DNA of 64,000 bases, from the NCBI GenBank assembly GCA_020342235.1, contig CP073213.1:1404501-1468500 (forward strand), read 5' to 3'. This document shows positions 8,042 through 61,090 of this stretch, one piece after another. Each line of letters starts with the position of its first letter. Position 1 is the first letter of the stretch. The stretch comes from Saccharomycopsis phalli. Lineage: Eukaryota; Ascomycota; Saccharomycetes; Ascoideales; Saccharomycopsidaceae. The notes beneath the pieces are model-generated. The model worked only from the letters and a program-made list of their open reading frames with translations, had not been told where the DNA came from and searched no databases. The translations under genes were made by a program, and so were the position numbers.

Positions 8042-8240
8042 ATATTTATCTAACGAATAATTCTTTACTATTTAGTGTAGTTGACCTATTAAGGCATATT
8101 TTGTTTCATGTGTTAATGCAAAGACCCCCTATACCCCTTTAGGAGACTATAGGGTGTCGCAGATTCATTGTCTTGAGTGTCCTTTCTGAAACCTGTTTAA
8201 CGTGGTTTCATCCTAACGACCACTTTAACGAAAACCAGAA

Positions 8241-11200
8241 ATGTTGGACAAGTTTAAGTCCAAGGATAAACAATCCTTTTCAGAACAAGAGCTAGCTTAT
8301 ATTCAAGCTCATAATAATAGTAGCATGCAAGGCCACTCGTTTAATGGAGATCACGTACCGAGCTTCAGAGATTCTTACAACAACAGAGCTTCAGCGTACC
8401 GAAACTCGATAATCTCAGAAAATCCTTCATACAGGGGCCAAAACAATATGATGCCTGCCGAGTCTTCTACCGAATCAACCACCGATAGCTCTAATGCCAA
8501 CGAGCCAAATTACAGCAGTCCTATTAACTCCAACTTCAATGAGTCTTCTGTTTCGTTGTCGACGTTCAATATGCCGTCTTTGGACTCATCATCGATGAAT
8601 GATCCTAGAAATTCTATTTATAGAGGCGCAGGTGGCTCTCTTGCTGGTGCCTCTGTCATGGATGATATTCGGTCAATGTATATTCCAAACGGGGAGGAAG
8701 GCGAAATGTATGAGCCAGAAACACCAACCAGTGGTGATATGAACGCGGTTCATTACAGAGACATTTGCTGGCAGAATGTGATAACCAAAGTGGCAAAGTC
8801 TATTGTTATTTTGAAATTTACCAAGATCCACAACTATGATACCGAGCAAACTGGTATCTTTAAGACATTGGGATTCATTGTCGATGACAAGAACGGGTTG
8901 ATTTTGACATGTAAGAAAATTATTGGTAATGGACCGATTCAAATAATTGCAATTTTCAATAACTTTGAGGAGATCTTGGTTAAGCCATTGTACATCGACC
9001 CTACTCATGATTTTATGGTTCTCAAATTTGACCCTACAAGAATAAAGTTCTTAAAGATCCAAGGGTTAGAACTCAGCCCTAACTTGGTGAAATTGGGATG
9101 TGAATTCAAGATTTTTTCTTTAAACAACAATTTAAATGACTATGACCACGAAGAAAATAATTTGATTGTGCTCAATGGGTTTATATCGAGATTAGACTGT
9201 AACGCTCCAATTTACGGTTCAGGGCAGTTCTTATCCTATAATGATTTCAACACGGAGTACATGCAGGCCTTGACATATAATGCATTTAAAAACTATGCCA
9301 AGGACAAAAAGGATCAGTTTTTCTTGACATGTGGATCTCCAGTTATTGATATTAATGGATTTGTCATTGCTTTGGAGACTGCTTCGTTTATAAACAATAA
9401 TGACACTTCTACTTCTACCAATTTCTTATTGCCTTTGTATAGGGCACAGACTATTTTACAGGAGATTCAACAGAATTTAGATGGTGCAACGTTGTTTAGA
9501 CCAGTGTCCGTGAAAACGTTTGAGGAAGAAGATAATTTCTACGATCCTAACAATCCTCAATTGAATAATCCACCTCAAAATTTGGGTAAACATAATGCTG
9601 TCAAGCAAATGAATATTCAAAGTCGTGTTACCATTAATCGTGGTACTATACAGGTCCAATGGGTTTTGAAGACTTTCAATGAGTGTCGTAAGTTGGGACT
9701 TCAAACTTTGATTGAGAGTATCGCAAGAGAAAAATTCCCAGATATTAATGGTCTTTTAGTGGCCAAGGTTGTATTACCTTATGGCCCTGCTCATGATAAA
9801 ATTAAGGAAGGAGACGTCTTGATTTCTGTGAACAACTTTGATATCTGTTCTTTAATTCAATTGGAGGAAATTTTGGACAACTCTATTGCTTTGGATATTA
9901 GTTTGGTTTTGCAAAGAAATGGTGAAAATATCAAGGTTTCCTTAAAAGTTCAAGATTTGTTTGATATTACCAGCTTAAAATTTGTCCAGTCTTGTGGAGC
10001 TACGTTTAATGATATTAGTTACAATTTGGCAAGATTTTTTGTTTTGCCTTTGAAGGGAGTGTTTTTGAATCATTCTTACGGCGCATTTATGGATATTGGC
10101 GATGACAATGTTATTATTGATTCTATTGACACTCAAGAGATTTACAATTTGAATGACTTGGTTAATGTGATTAGAAGAATACCCGACTTTAAGAAGATTC
10201 CTATCTCTTACAGATGCATAAAAAACTTGAACGAACAAATCACAAAAGTAATCACTATTGACAAGCATTGGTTTAAGGCATTCAAACTATTTCAATTTAA
10301 CAATAAAACTGGATTATGGGATTTCGAAGATATTGGTCCTAGATATTATTTGCCGTCTATTCCAATTAAGCCTAAATTGGTTCGCTTTAACCACGGCGAA
10401 ATTGCCTCTGAGTTGGGCCATTTTAGAAATAATGCCGAGGTTATTAATATTTTAAGAAGTTTTGTTAAAGTTGAAATAAACTTTCCTTATTCTATTGATT
10501 CTTTCCCTAACACCATTAAGAGATGTCACGGATTGATTATTGATAATTTCAACGGTTATGTTCTTGTCTCAAGATATTATATACCGCATGATTTGTGTGA
10601 TGTCACTGTTATCTTTAACGAATCGGCATACTTACCAGCAGAAGTTGTATTCATGCATCCATTTCAGAATTATGTCATCTTGAAATATGATCCTTCTTTG
10701 GTTGAGTTTGATCCTGAATTCCAGTCGCAAACTCCAAATTTTAACACTAACAATACCGCTTATATGAAGAAGCATCAAAAGGTATTATTCGTTGGTTATG
10801 ATAACAATTTTAAATTGACCGTGGCAGAGACTTTAGTCAAGGACATTAAGTCGTCTAACAATATCCAAATCAATCCATACAATCCATTCTACAAGTGTTG
10901 CAATTTGGAGCTCTTAAAGGTGGAGAGTCAATATGTCCAAAACAAGTGTAATTTTGGTGTATTGTGTGAGCCTAATTCAGGCAAGATTTTGGGATTATGG
11001 TTAAGATTTAGTGTGTTCAGCAGCAACCAGAATGTTAGTCTTTCCAACACAGAGAAGCCTACTATTAAATTCTCTATTGATCATGAAAGCAGCAAAAAGG
11101 CCAAGAAGGCCAGTGCCCCTGTGGACTATTCTTATAGCATGGGTGTCGACATCTTGCACATTATCAACATTATCTTACATTTCCAGGCTGTTAACAAGCC

Positions 11201-12245
11201 TCCAAAGGTAAGAATCTTAGAGGCCGAGTTCAACAACATCTCGGTTCTCAAGGCCAGAATCAGAGGTTTGTCCGATGAACGTATTGAATTTATTGAGTTG
11301 AAGTCTATTGGTTATTCTGGATCAGGGAGCAAGGGTGATAAATCCAACACTAAATTAAACTTTTTGGAAGTCTCTAAATTGATTTGTTCTGACTACAATA
11401 TTCCATCAAAGGTGGACCCAAACACCGGTGCAGTAGTCAGCGAAGACAGTTCTGGTATTGTTGATAGTCAACAATTGGTCAACTACAATAACGCGAACGA
11501 TGTGATGACCTTACAACCGGGCGATATTTTGTTATCTGTTAATGACAATTTGGTTAATCGGATTGCCGATTTGGACTTGATGTATTACAGTAAGTACTTG
11601 AACTTCAAGGTGGTTAGAAAAGAACGCGAGTTGAACTTCAAGGTCAAAACGCAGGAGGTTACAAATACAAATCATGTATTGATATGGTCTGGATTAGTGG
11701 TTCACAAGCCACATTTGGGTGTTAAACAATTAATACATTGTTCGATTAATGGAATCTCCAACAATACATCTGTTGGTGCAACCACCACAAAAGCATTAAC
11801 GCTTGGGTCGGCTGCTAACGGCGCGAATCTTGCGGCTGATAATAGCAAACACATCCATCCTGGGTTACCAAGTGGAATTTTCATCAGTGATGTTACTCCA
11901 GGTTCTCCTGCTGAGCTTTTTGGATTTGAACCAAACAATTTCATCACTCATGTCAATGATATCCATACACCAGACTTGGACACTTTCAAGAAAGTTATTG
12001 CTAAAATCAGTATTATTCAACACAAGTCGACCACTTTAATGATGACTTCTGCTTTGAAAATCAGGGTGGTGAACATGACTAATATCCCAAGTATCTTACC
12101 GATCCAACCAAACTATTACTACAACCCAACAATCGAATTTAAAAAGGAGACCGGAAGTTACCAATGGGTTGAACACAATTACTTGGATGAGAAGTTATTC
12201 AAGTTTGACCGGAACAGATATGAAGACTTTTATAGTAGAATGTGA
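8241..12245 (+). CDS. degenerate Nma111-type (HtrA-like) protein, probably proteolytically inactive
   Basis: A 1334-residue protein. A Ser/Asn-rich N-terminal extension (about 1-170) precedes two tandem HtrA-like halves with PDZ-like segments, laid out as in Nma111 (997 aa in S. cerevisiae). Family blocks include DPTHDF, LKFDPTRIKF, SYNDFNTEY, PKLVRFNHGEIASELGHF and PHDLC. In the first protease domain the usual catalytic His context (NRHVV) reads CKKII, giving Lys226. The Asp is kept at 257. The nucleophile context (SSGSPV) reads TCGSPV, giving Cys364. A normal Ser-His-Asp triad is therefore absent. In yeasts Nma111 is a nuclear protease linked to stress and cell death. I infer a diverged paralogue with a scaffold or regulatory role, and a true NMA111 probably lies elsewhere in the genome. 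Confidence 0.8.
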   Translation: MLDKFKSKDKQSFSEQELAYIQAHNNSSMQGHSFNGDHVPSFRDSYNNRASAYRNSIISENPSYRGQNNMMPAESSTESTTDSSNANEPNYSSPINSNFNESSVSLSTFNMPSLDSSSMNDPRNSIYRGAGGSLAGASVMDDIRSMYIPNGEEGEMYEPETPTSGDMNAVHYRDICWQNVITKVAKSIVILKFTKIHNYDTEQTGIFKTLGFIVDDKNGLILTCKKIIGNGPIQIIAIFNNFEEILVKPLYIDPTHDFMVLKFDPTRIKFLKIQGLELSPNLVKLGCEFKIFSLNNNLNDYDHEENNLIVLNGFISRLDCNAPIYGSGQFLSYNDFNTEYMQALTYNAFKNYAKDKKDQFFLTCGSPVIDINGFVIALETASFINNNDTSTSTNFLLPLYRAQTILQEIQQNLDGATLFRPVSVKTFEEEDNFYDPNNPQLNNPPQNLGKHNAVKQMNIQSRVTINRGTIQVQWVLKTFNECRKLGLQTLIESIAREKFPDINGLLVAKVVLPYGPAHDKIKEGDVLISVNNFDICSLIQLEEILDNSIALDISLVLQRNGENIKVSLKVQDLFDITSLKFVQSCGATFNDISYNLARFFVLPLKGVFLNHSYGAFMDIGDDNVIIDSIDTQEIYNLNDLVNVIRRIPDFKKIPISYRCIKNLNEQITKVITIDKHWFKAFKLFQFNNKTGLWDFEDIGPRYYLPSIPIKPKLVRFNHGEIASELGHFRNNAEVINILRSFVKVEINFPYSIDSFPNTIKRCHGLIIDNFNGYVLVSRYYIPHDLCDVTVIFNESAYLPAEVVFMHPFQNYVILKYDPSLVEFDPEFQSQTPNFNTNNTAYMKKHQKVLFVGYDNNFKLTVAETLVKDIKSSNNIQINPYNPFYKCCNLELLKVESQYVQNKCNFGVLCEPNSGKILGLWLRFSVFSSNQNVSLSNTEKPTIKFSIDHESSKKAKKASAPVDYSYSMGVDILHIINIILHFQAVNKPPKVRILEAEFNNISVLKARIRGLSDERIEFIELKSIGYSGSGSKGDKSNTKLNFLEVSKLICSDYNIPSKVDPNTGAVVSEDSSGIVDSQQLVNYNNANDVMTLQPGDILLSVNDNLVNRIADLDLMYYSKYLNFKVVRKERELNFKVKTQEVTNTNHVLIWSGLVVHKPHLGVKQLIHCSINGISNNTSVGATTTKALTLGSAANGANLAADNSKHIHPGLPSGIFISDVTPGSPAELFGFEPNNFITHVNDIHTPDLDTFKKVIAKISIIQHKSTTLMMTSALKIRVVNMTNIPSILPIQPNYYYNPTIEFKKETGSYQWVEHNYLDEKLFKFDRNRYEDFYSRM

Positions 12246-50836: not shown

Positions 50837-53800
50837 CTAAGCAAATCCAAAACCCTCATGGCCTTCTGTAATAGCTAACAATAATGAACCGCGCAATTGC
50901 TCATATGATTGATATCCCGGTAAGTCGAGTTGATTGAAGCATGTATGGGCACTAGGCAAACGATCAGGAGAGCCATAATCTCTGTGAATGCTAAATTTCT
51001 GGTTTCCATTGACTCCAGCTAACGAAGAAAAGCCTTGCAATGGCACTTTACTTGTACCAGTGACAAATTGTAACAATTTAGCCTTTTGTTCGTTCTCAAA
51101 AGACTTAACTGCCCTCCAAAACCATTGAATTTCTGGACTGGAAGGAGAATAATTAGTATACGTGGTGTTGTGTTTCCAGTCATCCACGTCAATATCCGGC
51201 AACCCAGAAATTAATAATTCCAATTCCTGTTCGTCAAATATCGAAATCAATTCTTTAGGGATAATCTCGTGAAAACCTTCTAAGAAGCTTTGCATTTGAT
51301 CTTTTACAGATTCCTGCAATCTGAACTCAACGACCAACTTGACATATTCATTCTTATTTTCTTCCGAGACCATTATATTTCTTCCATCTGGAATTAAATC
51401 AACAACCTTCTGCTCACCATAATCCTCCGTTTCCACCGAAAATGTCTCAGTGATAATATCGGTGATATCATTTTCCAACATCCACATCAAAGACTTGAAG
51501 TAATCAAGGTCCAAAGTTTCCATATCTTTCAATGATACCGGAATACCTAATAACCTTTTGTAAACAGCTCGGCTAAAGTGCGCATCCAAATACTGATTAT
51601 CATATATCCCCTTACCGATGATTCTTCCAATAAACTTAAAGAATAATAAATGCTCCGAATTGACCCACGAAGTTCTGTTTGGATGAAAAGTTGATTTGTC
51701 AGAAGCCACTGGTATGAATAATGCATAGTCAGGATTGAACATTTGCCTAGACAATACCTGATACCACTCTCTAGTAACACCACCAGCGTCAATTCCTGAT
51801 TCTCCTTTGAAACTAATTTCCAAGGGCGAATCTCTAAATACATTTGCCGATTTAAAAGCTAATGCCCTGTAAGAGTCCAAAAATACTCTGTCACGACTAA
51901 CCTTAACCAGCAATGATGAACTGGCAACAGACTTGGAATGCAACTTCCGATTGAAATAGTTTCTCTTGTTATCAAATTCCAAGATCTTTGGGTTTCTAAC
52001 CAACATAGCAAACGGTCCACTCATTAACTTTGGCTTCGTCCGAACCATTTCATTTAAAATTACCTTATGCTCGTTGGTAAACGAAAAGAATAAACTTTCA
52101 ATTGGTTCATTAGTAAAGTCATGTGCCTTGTTTTCATACTTCAAGGTATCTTTAGCTTGCAAGTCCTTAACTTTACTATGTTTACAAACCACCATCAAAC
52201 TCTCTATCAATGGCAACAACACTGCGGCAACATGATACAAAAGCTTGTTCTTCTCCAACCCTCTAAGACAGTCGCTCAATTTTCCCCATAAGGCACCCAA
52301 GGCAAGCTTCTCATATAATGTTTTCAACGATTCAAAGTCTATTTCCTCCTTTTTAGAGTCAAACAAATAGTCAACCGCAGTCAAAACCCTCAATAGTTTA
52401 TTCTGCGTTGAACTGGTGTGGGTAAACCGATTTAATACCTCCGGGTCCATATCCGCAGTCTCCCCAGCGTTATTAATGCAACCCGCTAAGTCGTTCAAAT
52501 CATTAACCAATAGCTTTCCTGCACTAGTGGCAAATGAGGATAGCTGCGACGAAAACACTTGCTTTGCATTTGATATGGACGATAAGTTTTTCATAGTGGT
52601 CAAAGCCTGTTGAAATGTTTTATTCGAGCAATCATCAGATATTAAAATAGAAACAACCAAGCTTAAGTTGGAGTTTGGAATAATTGGAGGTTCCAATTCT
52701 TTAATGGCCTTGTCATTTTGAGGTGTGTGAGGCACCTCATTTTGGGAATTACCACTAGGTATCTCAGCAATAGAATTGTCGACAGACACATTGTCAGTAA
52801 TACCAGACTGAGAGTCGCCAGAAATTTCAGAGGGGCCCTCGACAGCGATTTCAGAAATATCACCAGAATTGGTGTCCAACTCTTGTTTCTCCTCCTTCTT
52901 AGACTTTCCAATAATGGCTAGGACAGCCAAAGAACTAGTTGCTATCTTTATACTCTTTGATAGTAGATCCATTAATACTTGTTCCTTTTTAACTAACGGT
53001 TTCTCAATCAATGCCAAAAGAATATTTATAGGATATTTTGATTCCTTCTTAGTTAGCTCCTTTACCTTTGATTTTGAACGAATTAATTTTCTTCCTAACA
53101 ACAAACTGTCGTGCTCAGTCAAAAAATAATATCTAAGATGAGGATAGGATTCAAGCAAATAATTCAAGGCACCTAATACTCTACTAGCAACTCCAACCGG
53201 AGTCGCACTAATAGGAAACTGAACGGCTGATTTAGACAGGACAGAAGGTTGTCTGGCTGCCTTAGAGGACAACCTAATAAAGACCTTCTCTAATGATTTC
53301 TGATCATTTATACCATCTTGAAGAATGTACAATAATATAGATACAGTCTCTGATCTGGTTTGCTTGTTATAACACAAATACTCCAATAAGTCGTAGAACT
53401 CATCCTCTTGGACTAATTTCTGAGATATAAAAATCAATCTTAACAAACCAGTGACCTCTGATCTTTCAACTAAAGGCGTGAAATAAATCTTTTTCTTTGA
53501 AGTATTTTTATCCTCTTCATCTTCTGATTTCTCTTCTTCGTTTTCTCCTTCAGATGGTCGATATTCATGGCTAAATATTTGCCGCCCATCACCTTCAGTA
53601 TTAAAGTTATCAATATTGAATCGGGTGGCCAAAGCTTCTTGAGCTAACACTTCTTGGCGCAATTGCTCTGGTAATGCATTTAAAAATTCAGGGTCTATAC
53701 CCACTGGCGCAGTACTAGAAGTAGTTAGGCTTTCCTGTGCTCGTCTTTCATTTTCATGTTGCATATAGACCTCCTCTCTCATGTCCATTGGCAATGCAAG

Positions 53801-56800
53801 CAAGAACCCCAAATCAATATTAGTTCCAGAAATATCGACCTCTCGATCTCCAATTTGTACCATCACAGGCTCTTGTGCTGGTGCTACTTCAGCAGTCCCA
53901 TCATCTTCAGCAGCATCTAATTCCTCTTGCTTCATACGCTCTTCTTGCTTTAAACGCTCTTCTTCTTCCTGCTTTCTCTTTCTTTCTTCCTCTAATTGTC
54001 GTTTCGCCTCGGCCTCAGCTTCTTTCTTTAATTCTTCTTTCTTCTTTTGATCAGCCTCTAGACTCTTATCATAAATATCATCCACAATCTGTGGAATCAT
54101 TCTTGAAGCTTCCATTAAAGTATTCATATTGAAATGACCCAAGTAAATCAGTCTCCAAGCTTCTTCAGTGGTTCTGAATTCCACAAGTTTAGGATCTCTG
54201 GATGCTGGCATTCTGCATTGAACAATATCATTAAATCCAGACAGTCGACGACGACCATCAAACCACTCTAAATTGCTGTCTGCTCTTTGCTGAAAATACC
54301 TAGTATGTATAATTGATGGAGTAATTCTTCTTCTGACATTATAATCATAATGGGTTGGGAATACAGACTCTTCCTCATCTTCATCAATATCTCTGAAGTT
54401 GTTAAATGTATTTCTCTCATCTTCATCTTGAGAACGTTCTCCAGCCTCAGAATTTCCTTCGCCGTTAAGGCTACCATAAAATTGCAAGCGGCTATTTACA
54501 TTGCCACCTCTTCTGATAGAGCCTAATTGCCCTATACTGTTATCCCAGTCTGAAAAAGATCTTATGAAATTCAAAACATTCAATTGCTGAGTTGAGTTCA
54601 ACAGCATAACAGACATGTTATTTGTGCGTCTAATATTATTAATAGGACCATCATTAGCGCCCTCATAATTTTCAACCCACTGATCAATAACATCTGAATC
54701 TGCCTCACTTGATCCATCTTCCCCATCCTCGCCATCTTCATCTTCATCTTCATCATTATCATCCTCTTCATCCCCATCAATATCCTCTTCATCATCTTGA
54801 GAGAAATAATGGTCAGAGTCACTAACACCGTCAAATATCTCGTTATAAATTTCAATGTTTTCGTCATTCTCATTCTCATCATCAGCTTCAATACCCCCCT
54901 CATCACTAAAAATTTCGTGATCGTATAAGTTGTCGTCATCAACATCAACGTCAATTTCCATCACTGACCCTTGATCTTCATCATCGGCATCACTGCCATC
55001 TTCATCATCTTCTATGACCTCATCGATTTCATCAGAGTACACAATGATATCATCATCTTCATAGTCATCAGAGTCTTCTTCATCTTCTTCCTCTTCTGAA
55101 CTATTATTTTCAATGTCATTGATAGCCAAACTGGAATTTCTAAACATTTGAGCAATTTCATCATGAGAATCATACTCCTCGCCTTCAACCTCCTCTTCCT
55201 CCTCGCCATCACTAGTATTTCTAAATAAGTCTTGATGATCTGCCTTTAATGCACCAAACAAATTTAACAATTTAGTAACAGACTTAGAAATTTTTCGGAC
55301 TCCAGGGAAATTCAAATCAACATTGGCTATAATTGATGCCAACTGAGACGGAATATTTTTCTCAATCATAGATCTTCCAATATAGTAACTGCCATAATTC
55401 GCCAGGCGCTCTTTAAAAATTTCATCTAACATAATATCATCCTTCAAGAATAAGCTGCACAAGTCGGTTAACTCCACAAACTTACCGTACCGCAAGTTTG
55501 CCGGGTCAGAAGACTCGGATGTCTCCCTCAAAGCCTTCGAAATAATACCAATGGAGAATGTTCTAATGAAAAGCATATCAGAGTCTTCCTTTTGAGGTCC
55601 CTTGGCTTCTTTGACTTTATTATCAAGCTTGGTACCAGTCAATAAAGCACACAACGCCATCTTAGCTCTCTTGGAGACAAATAACCTTCTTCTGAATTCA
55701 TTATTTTTGTTACTAGCGAATATGTTTGTAGGAATCAACAAATGCAAAAAGAAGTTTAGTGCAGTAGAATGGGGCTTTACTCCCAAACCTTTCTTTGAGA
55801 AGGTTAAAAAATCAAATTTGCTTTGTTTATAAGACACCAATAGCTCAGTAATAACCCTTAGTAAATAAACAATGTAATCAAATTGAGGACTATTGTAGAA
55901 CCTATTAATCTCATCCTTTACTGATTTCTTTGCTTTTTTGGCCTTCTCTAACTTTGCAATCTGCTCAGGAGTATCGTTAGCCCAGTCATAATTCTTAAAC
56001 TTCATTAGCTCACATAGCAAATATCTCATAAGCTTGGAAATATTTCCAGTAGTGCTGATTTTTTCTTTCTCCTCGCCATCTTTCATTGTAACATCTTCAT
56101 TAGTGTTATCCTTGATTACTTGTAGTGAAGTCAAAGGGTTCTGTGGATATTCCAATGCAATCTTTTTACTAATGATTTCAACAAAAGCTTCTCTATCTCT
56201 TAAGGCATGGCCAATGGATTGTCGAACAATCGTGAGTAAGTCACACTTGATTCTCTTGCGACTGAATTTATTATCAAGATTTGCTAAGTTTTCATCAATC
56301 ACTCGATCAATTAGCTCTCTGACAACCTCCTTTGTCTCAAAACACCTTCTAATTAACGCAGCCAATATAGATTGGTATTTATTAAAAGTCTTGTGTTTGA
56401 CAGAATCAAATTTCATTGCTTTAGTCAAAACCGTTAGATTATCATCACTGTCAACTGGCCTCTCATTAGCATTCAAGTAAAGTGAATCAAAATTCTCAAC
56501 CACTTTTAATAAATTATTAATAATCGATGTACTGGTGACCCTATCATAGTCATAGTTCTGCAAATATAACACCAAAATCAAGCAAACGTTCATCGGCGTG
56601 TCAACATCAGCAAATTCTTCAATACCAAGAATGGTGTCCAAAATCTTTTCACCAATTTCAGGTGGTATATCGTATGGCAACTTAGGCTGAGGGGTAGGAA
56701 CATCAGGCATTACAATCCGTGATTCTTCGTAGTGAAACAACGATGTCGAATAAATAACCTCATAAACAGACAATGCATGCCCAAACCAGTTTGCTTTTGT

Positions 56801-59800
56801 ACAATTAGCATTGATTATCTGACCCAAAAATTCAAGCAACTGGATAAGATATCTTCTGTTTTCATCATACGTCGAATCCTCCATTAATAGATAACGAACG
56901 AGCTTCAATACAGAAGCCAATCTTTGATTATCAGGTCCTTTAGAATAGTCTAAGTCAAAAGAATATAGTACTTCGATGGCCACCTCCAATGGAAAGAACT
57001 CATTCTCAACACCGTCTTTCTCTTCAAAACTTGGAGATTTCATGATACTGAAAAACAAATTGGCGATACTCTCTTCAACACCAGGGTATAATTGACACAA
57101 ATTTAACCAATTATCAATAAACAAACTACCAGAATTGAATCGAAGCTTATTCAAATCAGCAACGGTCTTGAGCTCGCCATTAAGCCGGATTGGCTCGTCC
57201 AATTCCTTGAATTGATGCAGAGACGCATAATCTTGAATTTTAGACCATTTAGCTTCGTTAATACCCTCCGGAACAGATTCAAAAATTCTGTCTCTTTCTT
57301 TTAACAAGCCTTGGTTATCTAACAATTCAATTTCTTCTTTAACCAAACCTAAGCCCTCTAGGTACTCTTTAAAAAGTTTTTTTCTATTGAAGTTCTCGTA
57401 CACTAGAGGGTATAAGAGACTATCTTCATCTTTACTCAAATTCTCGCCATCCCCACAATAAACATCGCCAGAAATTATAACTAATTCTCTAATTATCTCT
57501 TGAGGTATAACAGCCTGAGAAATATCATTAAAGACAGGAGACTCAAACAACTCAACTAAAAGCTCAAAAGAAAATAGTCTTGCTTGAATTAAGAATGCCC
57601 TACTAACACTACCGCGATATAACTTCAGGCTGAAATCATATTTTGGAGGGGAACTTGCTGCCTTGTACTTTTTGGTCACCACATGCAAAAACTGAGTTAA
57701 CAACTTTTTGATTAGAGCCATTTTAATGCAGTAATCATTCTGGGTCACAATTATGTAGTGCATATACTTGCGATATTTCTCCGAATCCTCGGTAACTTTA
57801 ACACTATTCCAAGTTTTTAGCAATATGTCCTTCAAAAGGTTGAAACCATTATATTGCCAGAAATATAACGCAAACGCAACCTTAATCCTGGTACTCCCTG
57901 CAAAATCAACTACCAAAAGATGGTCAAGCAAATCAACAATAACTAACAAATAGTTATTTAATTGTAACTCAGACAAGCTCAAATTAGAGTAATTAAATAA
58001 CTCCGTTATTATCACTTTGGTAAAAAAGTCGTTAATAATAACATTTTCTTCACATGCACACAAGTCCAATTCAGGAATTACAGAGAAACAATCACCAATT
58101 GCGGATTGTATTTCTTCGATAATACTTCGAATTTGTAAAGTATTCTTTATCTTTGGGCTAGTTTTTCGAGCAACCTCCTTTGGCTTCTGTAAATGATCCG
58201 ACTTGAGCACTATTTGTGGAGCATATAAACCTTCTCTGTTCATAGACTCAATATTTTCTGAGGGACCGAAAGGCAAGTTCTCCCTTATTAAAATCTCTTC
58301 AACAGTAAGTCTTCGGTATAGTTTCGCAGATAGTTCCAAAAACTTTAAGCTACTCTTCTCGCTTAAAAATTCGCTTAACCGGCTAAACTTATTGGCCTTT
58401 TTGACAAACATGTCATTCAAAGCGTTCAAGCTTAAATTCAAAGTATTCAACTTTTGCAAAAATAATGAACCAGACTCATCAGTCAAATTATTATTGTCAA
58501 ACCGATAAAAGAATGATTGCGGCCCCTGATAGTTTATAAACTCAATAATCAAAGGATCATTTATCAACTCAATCACTTTAGAAAACAATGATTTAAAGCC
58601 ATAACCAAGTCTAGCAGAATCAATGGCCCTCAAACAATGCAACAATAAATTAAAGCTAGTATTGACTGCTTCGGTTGGAAACTTCTCAAATAACAATAAG
58701 GACAACCAGTTATTAAAAATAGTTTCATCATCCTCCTTAATGTCAAGTAACGGTCTCCATGTATCATACTCTGTCAAAGCAGTACATAAGAATGTCGCCA
58801 CACACAGAATGATATTTAGCTCTATTTCAGGATCCTCAAATAAGGTTTGACAATCTTTCTCTGTGTAATCGTCTGGCTCATCAGCACTATAATATAAGCC
58901 TCTGTTACCTAATTTAGACTTATAGAATTGTATACCCTTCATCTTTGGAGCTACCAAGATAGGTGTCTCAACTATTAACTTCTCGGTTGCTTCCAAAATT
59001 TCTGGCTTTAACTCATTATAGTGCCGTGCAAGATCATCAAAAGCTGCAGTGATGGAGCCAGTTAATTCCACGTCAATCAAAGTTTTGGCAATATCCTTGT
59101 TATAAAATATTTTGAAGAACTCCGTGATAATTTTTCTATCCATAACAGTTTTCAAACCAATTTTATTTAGACATATCGCACCAATCAAATCAGGCAAACT
59201 CAATATCAATAATGGATCATCAATAAGAAACTTAGGAAAGTTGTTAATTATTGTTTCAATAGATTTCGACTCCAACAATATAGGAAAGGATGTGGGCTCG
59301 TTTTGAATAATTGAAGAAATCGTTGCAAGAGAATCATTCAACACATTAGGACCAAACAAGTCACTATTATTGAATATTAAATTGAATGAATTCAAAATTG
59401 GGGAATCAAACAAATTTCTCATTCTATCGCCACTATCTGTACGAATCAATCCCAACGTCATCGTCACTAGAGACTTGGTGTAGCTAATTTCCTTCGCTTT
59501 CATTAAAATTCTGACCCCTAAATCAGTTTCATATAGCTGACTAACATTAAAATCTTTAGTGTCTTTCTTTAAAATATCCAATCCGTTAAATAAATTCTGA
59601 TTCTTAATATAATAGTCTACTTGATAGCCAATAGATTCTATCAACACCTTAAACCCCCCTTTGGAAATAAAAGGCTCCAAGTTGTTTAAGTTTTTAGTAA
59701 TTATGACTTTTAAAATATAAGCTGAATACCCAATAATATTTTTGTACTTATTGGATCTGAAAGGTAGTATCTCAATCAACTGACTCAATAAACCTGCTGA

Positions 59801-61090
59801 AGTCAATGAGTTGGATAATGACTTAACTTCCACAATATTTTCCAAAAATTGAAAGAAATATGTATAGGACTTTCTCATAATTTCCGCTCTATCATCTTTT
59901 AAGCTTAACTCCTTGACGGATATTATTGTATTATTCTTCTCTAACACTTTAGAAATCGATCTTAGGATCTTAAATATCAACCCATGACTGACATTTCCAT
60001 TTAATAACTTCAACAACTCCGATCTTAAATACTTCTTGTAAGAAATGCTAGCAATCGCAATCATGGCATCACAATAGATGACACTATCAAAACTATCTTG
60101 ATTTTCAAGTTTGATTAATGCGATAATCTGTTCTAAGCTACCTAACTCTTTCTCGGAGAGTATAGGCGAACTTCTGTTATTCAAGTAGTATTCAGTTATT
60201 AAGATGTTATAAGTGATGGACAATATGGTCAACTGCACCAATCTCTGGCGAAGCTTTAAGCTTTCTTCACTGTTGCTGTTAAAGCACTTGGCTACATTCA
60301 CTTGTACGCCAAAATTGAACCAGTAGTCTGGAGGAAGAACCTCTGTTGCTCTTTCATAGATTTCCTCGTAACTAAGCTTGCTAATCTCTTGCTTGCTAAA
60401 TGTCAAATTGGTGATTCCTTCGTTCAACTTGGCTGGCACTTTTTTCTTTGCTGACCTAGTTAACTTTGGCTGGTTGGTAGATTTAAAATATTGGAACTCC
60501 AATCGCTTCCAGTCTTCCGGAATAGACTTTTTGTGAGCAGCAATATCTAATAAGCTGTAGTTATCTCTCAAATTATTCTCATCAACAATTTGAATTTCTG
60601 GGAGGAAATGCGTAGCAATATACTGGACCCGCTTTCTTACAGTACCAGGTATTCTCATTGGGCTGTACCTCTTATTAACAACCCTTCCAGCAATACCAAT
60701 AAGAATTCTCAACACATAATACCAGACAGTTTCATTGGTACTATTTAACAATTGGTACAAGCGTTCGCTAGAGTTGTACAAATTCTTGCTACTGCATAGG
60801 TTCAATAAAGTCTCCGTGAACTTAAGAATGCTAATAATAACCTTTTCATCCTTCTTATCAACGACTTTCAACTTTACTTCTGTAAACTCTTCGAATCCAT
60901 ACTTTTCAATAATCTCCTCCAATATCTTATCAAAGCGATTCAACAAGGGAATCCAGTAATTCAAAAAATTAAACTGAGTGACAATCGGTAACAAATCACC
61001 ATCAATCTGGTTCATTAATTCAGTATCCGACAATTCTGACAATTCGGTCGCATACCTGAATTTTAGAATTTGATCGTCAGAAATTAACAT
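50837..61090 (-). CDS. TOM1: Tom1, giant HECT-type E3 ubiquitin ligase
   Basis: A 3417-residue protein (3268 in S. cerevisiae) from one uninterrupted frame. The long helical N-terminal half corresponds to the DUF908 and DUF913 armadillo-like regions. A very acidic Asp/Glu tract lies at about 1960-2130. Two ubiquitin-binding UBM-type motifs occur, FLLALPMDMREEV and FLNALPEQLRQEV. A C-terminal HECT domain starts at about 3060, with catalytic Cys3384 in SAHTCFNQLDLP and the terminal GHEGFGFA. Tom1/HUWE1 ligases degrade excess ribosomal proteins, histones and other orphan basic proteins; the acidic tract suits such clients. CTG codons are nearly absent from the conserved HECT part that I checked. 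It is divergent from PRS5. Confidence 0.95.
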   Translation of the reverse strand: MLISDDQILKFRYATELSELSDTELMNQIDGDLLPIVTQFNFLNYWIPLLNRFDKILEEIIEKYGFEEFTEVKLKVVDKKDEKVIISILKFTETLLNLCSSKNLYNSSERLYQLLNSTNETVWYYVLRILIGIAGRVVNKRYSPMRIPGTVRKRVQYIATHFLPEIQIVDENNLRDNYSLLDIAAHKKSIPEDWKRLEFQYFKSTNQPKLTRSAKKKVPAKLNEGITNLTFSKQEISKLSYEEIYERATEVLPPDYWFNFGVQVNVAKCFNSNSEESLKLRQRLVQLTILSITYNILITEYYLNNRSSPILSEKELGSLEQIIALIKLENQDSFDSVIYCDAMIAIASISYKKYLRSELLKLLNGNVSHGLIFKILRSISKVLEKNNTIISVKELSLKDDRAEIMRKSYTYFFQFLENIVEVKSLSNSLTSAGLLSQLIEILPFRSNKYKNIIGYSAYILKVIITKNLNNLEPFISKGGFKVLIESIGYQVDYYIKNQNLFNGLDILKKDTKDFNVSQLYETDLGVRILMKAKEISYTKSLVTMTLGLIRTDSGDRMRNLFDSPILNSFNLIFNNSDLFGPNVLNDSLATISSIIQNEPTSFPILLESKSIETIINNFPKFLIDDPLLILSLPDLIGAICLNKIGLKTVMDRKIITEFFKIFYNKDIAKTLIDVELTGSITAAFDDLARHYNELKPEILEATEKLIVETPILVAPKMKGIQFYKSKLGNRGLYYSADEPDDYTEKDCQTLFEDPEIELNIILCVATFLCTALTEYDTWRPLLDIKEDDETIFNNWLSLLLFEKFPTEAVNTSFNLLLHCLRAIDSARLGYGFKSLFSKVIELINDPLIIEFINYQGPQSFFYRFDNNNLTDESGSLFLQKLNTLNLSLNALNDMFVKKANKFSRLSEFLSEKSSLKFLELSAKLYRRLTVEEILIRENLPFGPSENIESMNREGLYAPQIVLKSDHLQKPKEVARKTSPKIKNTLQIRSIIEEIQSAIGDCFSVIPELDLCACEENVIINDFFTKVIITELFNYSNLSLSELQLNNYLLVIVDLLDHLLVVDFAGSTRIKVAFALYFWQYNGFNLLKDILLKTWNSVKVTEDSEKYRKYMHYIIVTQNDYCIKMALIKKLLTQFLHVVTKKYKAASSPPKYDFSLKLYRGSVSRAFLIQARLFSFELLVELFESPVFNDISQAVIPQEIIRELVIISGDVYCGDGENLSKDEDSLLYPLVYENFNRKKLFKEYLEGLGLVKEEIELLDNQGLLKERDRIFESVPEGINEAKWSKIQDYASLHQFKELDEPIRLNGELKTVADLNKLRFNSGSLFIDNWLNLCQLYPGVEESIANLFFSIMKSPSFEEKDGVENEFFPLEVAIEVLYSFDLDYSKGPDNQRLASVLKLVRYLLMEDSTYDENRRYLIQLLEFLGQIINANCTKANWFGHALSVYEVIYSTSLFHYEESRIVMPDVPTPQPKLPYDIPPEIGEKILDTILGIEEFADVDTPMNVCLILVLYLQNYDYDRVTSTSIINNLLKVVENFDSLYLNANERPVDSDDNLTVLTKAMKFDSVKHKTFNKYQSILAALIRRCFETKEVVRELIDRVIDENLANLDNKFSRKRIKCDLLTIVRQSIGHALRDREAFVEIISKKIALEYPQNPLTSLQVIKDNTNEDVTMKDGEEKEKISTTGNISKLMRYLLCELMKFKNYDWANDTPEQIAKLEKAKKAKKSVKDEINRFYNSPQFDYIVYLLRVITELLVSYKQSKFDFLTFSKKGLGVKPHSTALNFFLHLLIPTNIFASNKNNEFRRRLFVSKRAKMALCALLTGTKLDNKVKEAKGPQKEDSDMLFIRTFSIGIISKALRETSESSDPANLRYGKFVELTDLCSLFLKDDIMLDEIFKERLANYGSYYIGRSMIEKNIPSQLASIIANVDLNFPGVRKISKSVTKLLNLFGALKADHQDLFRNTSDGEEEEEVEGEEYDSHDEIAQMFRNSSLAINDIENNSSEEEEDEEDSDDYEDDDIIVYSDEIDEVIEDDEDGSDADDEDQGSVMEIDVDVDDDNLYDHEIFSDEGGIEADDENENDENIEIYNEIFDGVSDSDHYFSQDDEEDIDGDEEDDNDEDEDEDGEDGEDGSSEADSDVIDQWVENYEGANDGPINNIRRTNNMSVMLLNSTQQLNVLNFIRSFSDWDNSIGQLGSIRRGGNVNSRLQFYGSLNGEGNSEAGERSQDEDERNTFNNFRDIDEDEEESVFPTHYDYNVRRRITPSIIHTRYFQQRADSNLEWFDGRRRLSGFNDIVQCRMPASRDPKLVEFRTTEEAWRLIYLGHFNMNTLMEASRMIPQIVDDIYDKSLEADQKKKEELKKEAEAEAKRQLEEERKRKQEEEERLKQEERMKQEELDAAEDDGTAEVAPAQEPVMVQIGDREVDISGTNIDLGFLLALPMDMREEVYMQHENERRAQESLTTSSTAPVGIDPEFLNALPEQLRQEVLAQEALATRFNIDNFNTEGDGRQIFSHEYRPSEGENEEEKSEDEEDKNTSKKKIYFTPLVERSEVTGLLRLIFISQKLVQEDEFYDLLEYLCYNKQTRSETVSILLYILQDGINDQKSLEKVFIRLSSKAARQPSVLSKSAVQFPISATPVGVASRVLGALNYLLESYPHLRYYFLTEHDSLLLGRKLIRSKSKVKELTKKESKYPINILLALIEKPLVKKEQVLMDLLSKSIKIATSSLAVLAIIGKSKKEEKQELDTNSGDISEIAVEGPSEISGDSQSGITDNVSVDNSIAEIPSGNSQNEVPHTPQNDKAIKELEPPIIPNSNLSLVVSILISDDCSNKTFQQALTTMKNLSSISNAKQVFSSQLSSFATSAGKLLVNDLNDLAGCINNAGETADMDPEVLNRFTHTSSTQNKLLRVLTAVDYLFDSKKEEIDFESLKTLYEKLALGALWGKLSDCLRGLEKNKLLYHVAAVLLPLIESLMVVCKHSKVKDLQAKDTLKYENKAHDFTNEPIESLFFSFTNEHKVILNEMVRTKPKLMSGPFAMLVRNPKILEFDNKRNYFNRKLHSKSVASSSLLVKVSRDRVFLDSYRALAFKSANVFRDSPLEISFKGESGIDAGGVTREWYQVLSRQMFNPDYALFIPVASDKSTFHPNRTSWVNSEHLLFFKFIGRIIGKGIYDNQYLDAHFSRAVYKRLLGIPVSLKDMETLDLDYFKSLMWMLENDITDIITETFSVETEDYGEQKVVDLIPDGRNIMVSEENKNEYVKLVVEFRLQESVKDQMQSFLEGFHEIIPKELISIFDEQELELLISGLPDIDVDDWKHNTTYTNYSPSSPEIQWFWRAVKSFENEQKAKLLQFVTGTSKVPLQGFSSLAGVNGNQKFSIHRDYGSPDRLPSAHTCFNQLDLPGYQSYEQLRGSLLLAITEGHEGFGFA

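What the first reader, a model, noticed from the sequence alone, without database searches (positions are those of the whole stretch)
8241..12245. Nma111 paralogue that has lost its catalytic triad
At the catalytic His position the protein has Lys226, and at the nucleophile position Cys364, while the Asp (257) and the surrounding fold blocks are kept. The gene is intact and longer than normal (1334 versus about 1000 residues), with a Ser/Asn-rich extension. An open frame of this size implies selection for a non-proteolytic role, for example a PDZ scaffold or a dominant regulator of the active protease.
Basis: partly seen in the sequence, partly recalled or inferred. Interest (0 to 1): 0.7.

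Follow-up and report, generated by a model that had tools for sequence, protein, structure and literature searches.

The report
Yeast's only Nma111 protease looks dead
This yeast gene is a full-length relative of the nuclear stress protease Nma111 whose cutting site has been lost, and it seems to be the only copy in the genome, so the cell appears to keep the protein for something other than cutting proteins.

Summary
Window 8241-12245 (+) is an intact 1334-codon Nma111 homologue (protease repeat, two PDZ, degenerate protease repeat, two PDZ). First-repeat active-site positions read Lys226 (His), Asp257 (kept) and Cys364 (Ser). Also missing: the oxyanion-hole glycine (Leu362 by counting back from the nucleophile, in an enlarged loop). 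The second repeat carries none of the three residues. The paralogue reading is not supported: five genome searches (the window protein, recalled S. cerevisiae Nma111, its intact-triad protease domain, Pfam Trypsin_2 and PDZ_1) returned this locus only, and 12 of 16 contig ends carry telomere-like repeats, so a missed intact copy is unlikely. No active partner was found for it to regulate. The protease domain is still 45% identical to recalled S. cerevisiae Nma111, which suggests a kept fold. A Bir1-like gene, coding for the usual Nma111 substrate, is present. Best reading: this yeast's sole Nma111 is a pseudoprotease, probably a chaperone or PDZ scaffold. Not shown: expression, activity, location, selection (no relatives available), species. 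New variant of a known kind (pseudo-HtrA).

The parts
8241..12245 (+). sole NMA111-like gene found, 1334 aa, no inner stop
8241..8750 (+). N-terminal Ser/Asn-rich extension, residues 1-170, no Pfam match
8751..9515 (+). first HtrA protease-like repeat, residues 171-425, bounds set by hand (Trypsin_2 26.0 bits, below the 27.6 cut-off)
8916..8918 (+). Lys226 (AAA) at the catalytic His position
9009..9011 (+). Asp257 (GAT), catalytic Asp kept
9324..9326 (+). Leu362 (TTG) at the oxyanion-hole glycine (position 193, chymotrypsin numbering, by counting back from the nucleophile)
9330..9332 (+). Cys364 (TGT) at the nucleophile Ser position
9681..9959 (+). PDZ domain, about residues 481-573 (Pfam PDZ 481-539)
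9963..10187 (+). PDZ_1 (PDZ-like) domain, residues 575-649
10443..11210 (+). second, degenerate protease-like repeat, about residues 735-990; Tyr779, Asn810 and Phe905 at the triad positions
   Evidence: (profile segment only -3.1 bits)
11466..11648 (+). third PDZ (PDZ_2 match), residues 1076-1136
11859..12065 (+). fourth PDZ, bounds set by hand (PDZ_6 match at 1214-1255)
8126..8138 (.). two CCCCT (STRE-like) cores in the 199-base upstream gap; lead only
   Evidence: at 8126 and 8134, against 0.12 per 200 bases over the window

Best explanation
The gene is this yeast's only Nma111 (double HtrA) and it no longer cuts proteins. Shown from sequence: the first repeat has lost the general base (His to Lys226), the nucleophile (Ser to Cys364) and the oxyanion glycine (Leu362 by counting), and the second repeat carries no triad either. 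Inferred: Lys226 forms a salt bridge with Asp257 that holds the fold, and Phe361-Leu362 keep the oxyanion loop in the closed form, as Trp-Glu do in MamO. Inferred: the four PDZ domains and the two protease-like shells still bind partner or unfolded proteins, so the protein works as an oligomeric chaperone or PDZ scaffold, the non-proteolytic half of what S. cerevisiae Nma111/Ynm3 does. If it still acts on Bir1, it would bind it rather than cleave it.
For: Residues. Sole copy; near-complete assembly. Intact coding frame with ordinary codon use. First repeat 45.1% identical to recalled S. cerevisiae Nma111 over 206 aligned residues, against 41.7% over 235 for the second repeat. Conserved stretches flank the lost residues, for example around DPTHDF and YNDFNTEY. 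A gene with two BIR domains is kept. Non-proteolytic HtrA roles are in print: chaperone activity of Ynm3/Nma111 (passage in PMC4877387, citing Padmanabhan 2009), trimerization involving the inactive protease domain of Deg7 (passage in PMC3473262), and MamO, a pseudo-HtrA with a non-glycine residue 193 (section 9 of PMC4794232).
Against: No relatives could be searched, so dN/dS, the age of the loss and the identity that an intact orthologue would show as a baseline are unknown. The structure prediction failed (mean pLDDT 30.7), so the geometry is inferred from sequence. Alignments that do not rest on it are weak: 7-9 bits around the His and Asp and -2.2 bits after the nucleophile. Nothing tests expression, binding, chaperone activity or nuclear location.
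Confidence: 0.68

Rival explanations
1. The protein has switched to a cysteine protease: Cys364 is the nucleophile, as in 3C-type enzymes of the same fold, with another base.
For: Cys is chemically a nucleophile and sits at the Ser position; Asp257 is kept.
Against: The His position is Lys; the only His in residues 170-440 are 171, 197, 256 and 303, and 256 is next to Asp257 as in the recalled S. cerevisiae sequence. No glycine at position 193 for the open oxyanion hole (principle from PMC4794232 section 9).
Confidence: 0.06
2. It is a dead paralogue beside an active NMA111 that the assembly or the search missed.
Against: A recalled intact-triad probe finds this gene at 2.3e-43 and next only this gene's own second repeat at 0.08; the window protein, the full-length recalled probe and the Pfam Trypsin_2 and PDZ_1 searches give this locus only.
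Confidence: 0.07
3. The gene is decaying: protease loss is the first step of loss of the whole gene, with no current function.
For: Two triad residues, the oxyanion glycine and several loops have changed; no relatives to show constraint.
Against: 1334 open codons, codon use like its neighbours, 38-53% identity to recalled S. cerevisiae Nma111 in the six protease and PDZ blocks measured (27.7% in a linker), PDZ_1 89.7 bits against a cut-off of 28. His to Lys needs two base changes, which suggests the loss is not brand new.
Confidence: 0.09
4. Catalysis is kept by Lys226 as general base (Ser/Lys-dyad-like chemistry) with Cys364 or a nearby Ser.
For: Ser/Lys dyads exist in other clans (passage in PMC7804941).
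Against: I know of none in the trypsin fold (recalled); Asp257 would be expected to hold Lys protonated; the oxyanion glycine is missing.
Confidence: 0.03

Closest known systems
Nma111/Ynm3 of S. cerevisiae and CaNma111 of C. albicans
   Same: Double HtrA with four PDZ domains and a degenerate second repeat; 38-53% identity to the recalled S. cerevisiae protein in the protease and PDZ blocks; a Bir1-like gene in the genome.
   Different: The known proteins are described as serine proteases, and CaNma111 lowers CaBir1 (passages in PMC9085738); here the first repeat has lost His, Ser and the oxyanion Gly, and the protein is about 330 residues longer than the recalled S. cerevisiae one.
Plant Deg7 (PD-PDZ-PDZ-PDia-PDZ-PDZ)
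   Same: Same domain order; an inactive protease domain kept as a structural part, involved in trimerization of AtDeg7 (passages in PMC3473262).
   Different: Deg7 keeps a potentially active first domain; here both are inactive by sequence.
MamO and inactive MamE copies of magnetotactic bacteria
   Same: HtrA-family pseudoproteases with a changed nucleophile (Thr in MamO) and, in MamO, a bulky residue 192 and a non-glycine residue 193 (section 9 of PMC4794232).
   Different: There one of two redundant proteases in a genome lost its catalysis (passages); here no second one was found. MamO binds metal through a di-histidine motif, a role with no evidence here.
Haptoglobin and protein Z (recalled; no call gave the residues)
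   Same: Trypsin-fold pseudoproteases in which the catalytic His is replaced by Lys.
   Different: Secreted animal proteins of another subfamily.

Membership tests
Nma111/Deg7-type double HtrA (by descent) | two HtrA-like repeats, each followed by two PDZ domains | tested here: met
   two protease-like repeats and four PDZ stretches in that order; Trypsin_2 is just below its cut-off (26.0 against 27.6 bits) and matches the first repeat only
Nma111/Deg7-type double HtrA (by descent) | PDZ_1 domain after the first PDZ | tested here: met
   89.7 bits, cut-off 28
Nma111/Deg7-type double HtrA (by descent) | similarity to S. cerevisiae Nma111 along its length | tested here: met
   five pieces between residues 70 and 989 of the 998 recalled, best E 3.7e-97
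Nma111/Deg7-type double HtrA (by descent) | degenerate second repeat | tested here: met
   Tyr779, Asn810, Phe905 (weak profile segment, -3.1 bits)
Active HtrA (S1C-type) serine peptidase | His-Asp-Ser triad | tested here: not met
   Lys226, Asp257, Cys364; 12 of 12 bacterial HtrAs used as yardstick show His and Ser at these columns
Active HtrA (S1C-type) serine peptidase | glycine at the oxyanion position 193 | tested here: not met
   Leu362 by counting, no Gly in the enlarged loop; Gly in 12 of 12 bacterial HtrAs
Nma111 (functional) | nuclear location | not testable with these tools
   one simple NLS-like KKAK match at residue 952 and no bipartite match; weak
Pseudoprotease with kept function | purifying selection after loss of the site | not tested
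   no relatives could be searched; open frame and codon use only

The most novel reading that the evidence does not exclude
A yeast lineage keeps Nma111 as its only HtrA-type protein after losing catalysis in both repeats, while keeping the Bir1-like gene: a natural separation of function showing that the conserved job of the eukaryotic nuclear double HtrA can be binding or chaperoning rather than proteolysis, and not merely a dead regulator of an active partner.
Probability: 0.55. Interest if true: 0.62.

Novelty: new variant of a known kind. Interest (0 to 1): 0.5.

Why it matters
Nma111 is usually described as a pro-death nuclear serine protease, yet S. cerevisiae Nma111/Ynm3 is also reported to have chaperone activity. 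A species whose only copy cannot cut would separate the two roles in nature and give a ready-made protease-dead protein to test which one evolution keeps. The HtrA pseudoproteases of magnetotactic bacteria, such as MamO, arose where a second protease was at hand; a sole-copy loss would be a different route.

Tried and rejected
Bacterial homologues by tblastn with the same stretch against plasmids: 2 of 72,556 records, E 0.7 and 2; used only as a door to HtrA sequences.

Species: the genome (14,148,124 bases, 8 contigs; window 39.0% GC) was compared with the S. schoenii paper (14.3 Mb, 7 scaffolds, 33.9% GC; passages) and does not match it. A tRNA-Ser(CAG) hunt by pattern gave 34 places, about as many as the backward control (31). 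ARAGORN, set for the bacterial code, found no tRNA in 18 of the 20 loci (two were not given to it) nor in the 14 short stretches fetched for the other 14 places. Contexts of CTG codons and alignments of two neighbouring proteins with CTG positions in the matched part (in one search the CTG positions lay outside it) do not settle Leu against Ser; the gene has no CTG codon, so it does not matter here. Telomere-unit searches in papers gave nothing useful in the listings (7 papers; 10 of 18 listed).

Literature for a known catalytically dead Nma111: the listings (30 of 77 papers), 27 and 41 and the passages show none; only open-licence PMC papers are held and most of these were seen as listings, so this is no proof of absence. 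Padmanabhan 2009 itself is not held and was not read.

Full report
What is there. The ORF at 8241-12245 (+) encodes 1334 residues in a frame that is open for 1338 codons. At the gene's base composition 1334 open codons have a chance of about 10^-41, the other frames are open for at most 125 codons, and synonymous codon use follows that of 13 pooled neighbouring genes (r = 0.91; 0.84 for the first-repeat part alone). Pfam finds PDZ_1 (89.7 bits, cut-off 28), PDZ_6, PDZ and PDZ_2, and Trypsin_2 just below its cut-off (26.0 against 27.6). Upstream lies a proteasome subunit gene, downstream on the other strand a Med11 gene. The window belongs to a 14,148,124-base genome in 8 contigs, by its genes a budding yeast; the species was not identified.

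The lost active site. The motif SSGSP is TCGSP here, so the residue before GSP, the nucleophile, is Cys364; the pairwise script put recalled residue 235 on Thr363, which I put down to one residue too many in the recalled sequence before this point. Alignments that do not depend on memory agree for the His and Asp but are weak: PDB DegQ and DegS chains (9.2 and 7.8 bits) and a profile of 12 bacterial HtrAs (7.0 bits). For the Ser, the profile starts its match at Gly365, directly after Cys364, with -2.2 bits. In those 12 bacterial HtrAs, His, oxyanion Gly and nucleophile Ser are present in 12 of 12. Here, counting back from the nucleophile, position 193 is Leu362, preceded by Phe361, in a loop with a 12-residue insertion; the aligner puts the gap between the S. 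cerevisiae Gly-Gly and Ser-Ser, and the inserted stretch holds no Gly. In MamO, a pseudo-HtrA, a bulky residue 192 and a non-glycine residue 193 are described as incompatible with the open oxyanion hole and productive substrate binding (section 9 of PMC4794232). The second repeat has Tyr779, Asn810 and Phe905 at its triad positions (profile segment -3.1 bits); a degenerate second domain is usual in Deg7-type proteins (passages in PMC3473262), so this part is not new.

Only one copy. The window protein finds only itself in the genome. Recalled full-length S. cerevisiae Nma111 finds five pieces at E up to 10, all in this gene, best E 3.7e-97. Its protease domain with an intact triad finds this gene at 2.3e-43 and then only this gene's own second repeat at 0.08. 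PDZ_1 gives two matches and Trypsin_2 one, all in this gene. PDZ_6 gives four matches, three in this gene and one at C7:1093044, in a 276-residue frame with no HtrA look by eye. The PDZ_2 search had no match at E 0.001 anywhere, not even in this gene, so that search is insensitive here, and the tool scores only its best candidates. Telomere-like 8-base repeats end 12 of 16 contig ends; of the other four, one reads N, one ends in what looks like 18S rDNA (by eye), and two end in other sequence. A missed intact copy is therefore unlikely but not excluded.

What it probably does. Identity to the recalled S. cerevisiae protein, in blocks set by hand, is 45.1% in the first repeat, 52.7% in the following PDZ block, 39.8% in PDZ_1, 27.7% in a linker, 41.7% in the second repeat, and 41.5% and 38.3% in the last two blocks. 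The first repeat is thus not the fastest-changing part. No intact orthologue was at hand as a baseline, so a mild loosening of the first repeat cannot be excluded. The fold seems to be kept without the chemistry. Ynm3/Nma111 has chaperone activity (passage in PMC4877387), and the inactive domain of AtDeg7 is involved in trimerization (passage). A Bir1-like gene with two BIR domains stands at C5:131458-132081; in C. albicans CaNma111 lowers CaBir1 (passages in PMC9085738). I infer a chaperone or scaffold role. Two CCCCT cores upstream (8126, 8134; window mean 0.12 per 200 bases) would fit stress induction but are only a lead.

Limits. The genome has no searchable relatives here, so neither dN/dS nor the clade-wide spread could be measured; the structure prediction failed. 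The claim that the site is lost is strong (about 0.9 in my judgement); the claim that the protein now works as a chaperone or scaffold is inference.

Noticed in passing
contig ends of G000 (L103, L105-L107, L110-L114, L117-L119): Telomere-like tandem repeat with an 8-base unit, (GTGCGGAT)n on the G-rich strand, at 12 of 16 contig ends; two paper searches for the unit showed no yeast telomere paper with it in their listings that I could recognise.
   Followed up: partly
window 8126-8138: Two CCCCT (STRE-like) cores 8 bases apart in the 199-base gap upstream of the gene, beside partly inverted CCCTATA/TATAGGG bases (by eye).
   Followed up: partly
window 50837-61090 (-): Open 3417-codon homologue of the HECT ubiquitin ligase TOM1.
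   Followed up: no
window, 22 ORFs counted: CTG is rare (83 of 1485 Leu-type codons, 23 of them in the RhoGAP-LIM gene, none in the NMA111-like gene), and some CTG codons sit in Ser-rich contexts; whether CTG reads Leu or Ser here is open.
   Followed up: partly
G000 C5:131458-132081: Bir1-like gene with two BIR domains in a 710-residue open frame.
   Followed up: partly
G000 C1:1305966-1306188: The same 13-base match three times at 105-base spacing: probably a tandem repeat.
   Followed up: no
G000 C7:1093044-1093109: Weak PDZ_6 match in a 276-residue frame, perhaps a Nas2-type proteasome chaperone (name recalled).
   Followed up: partly
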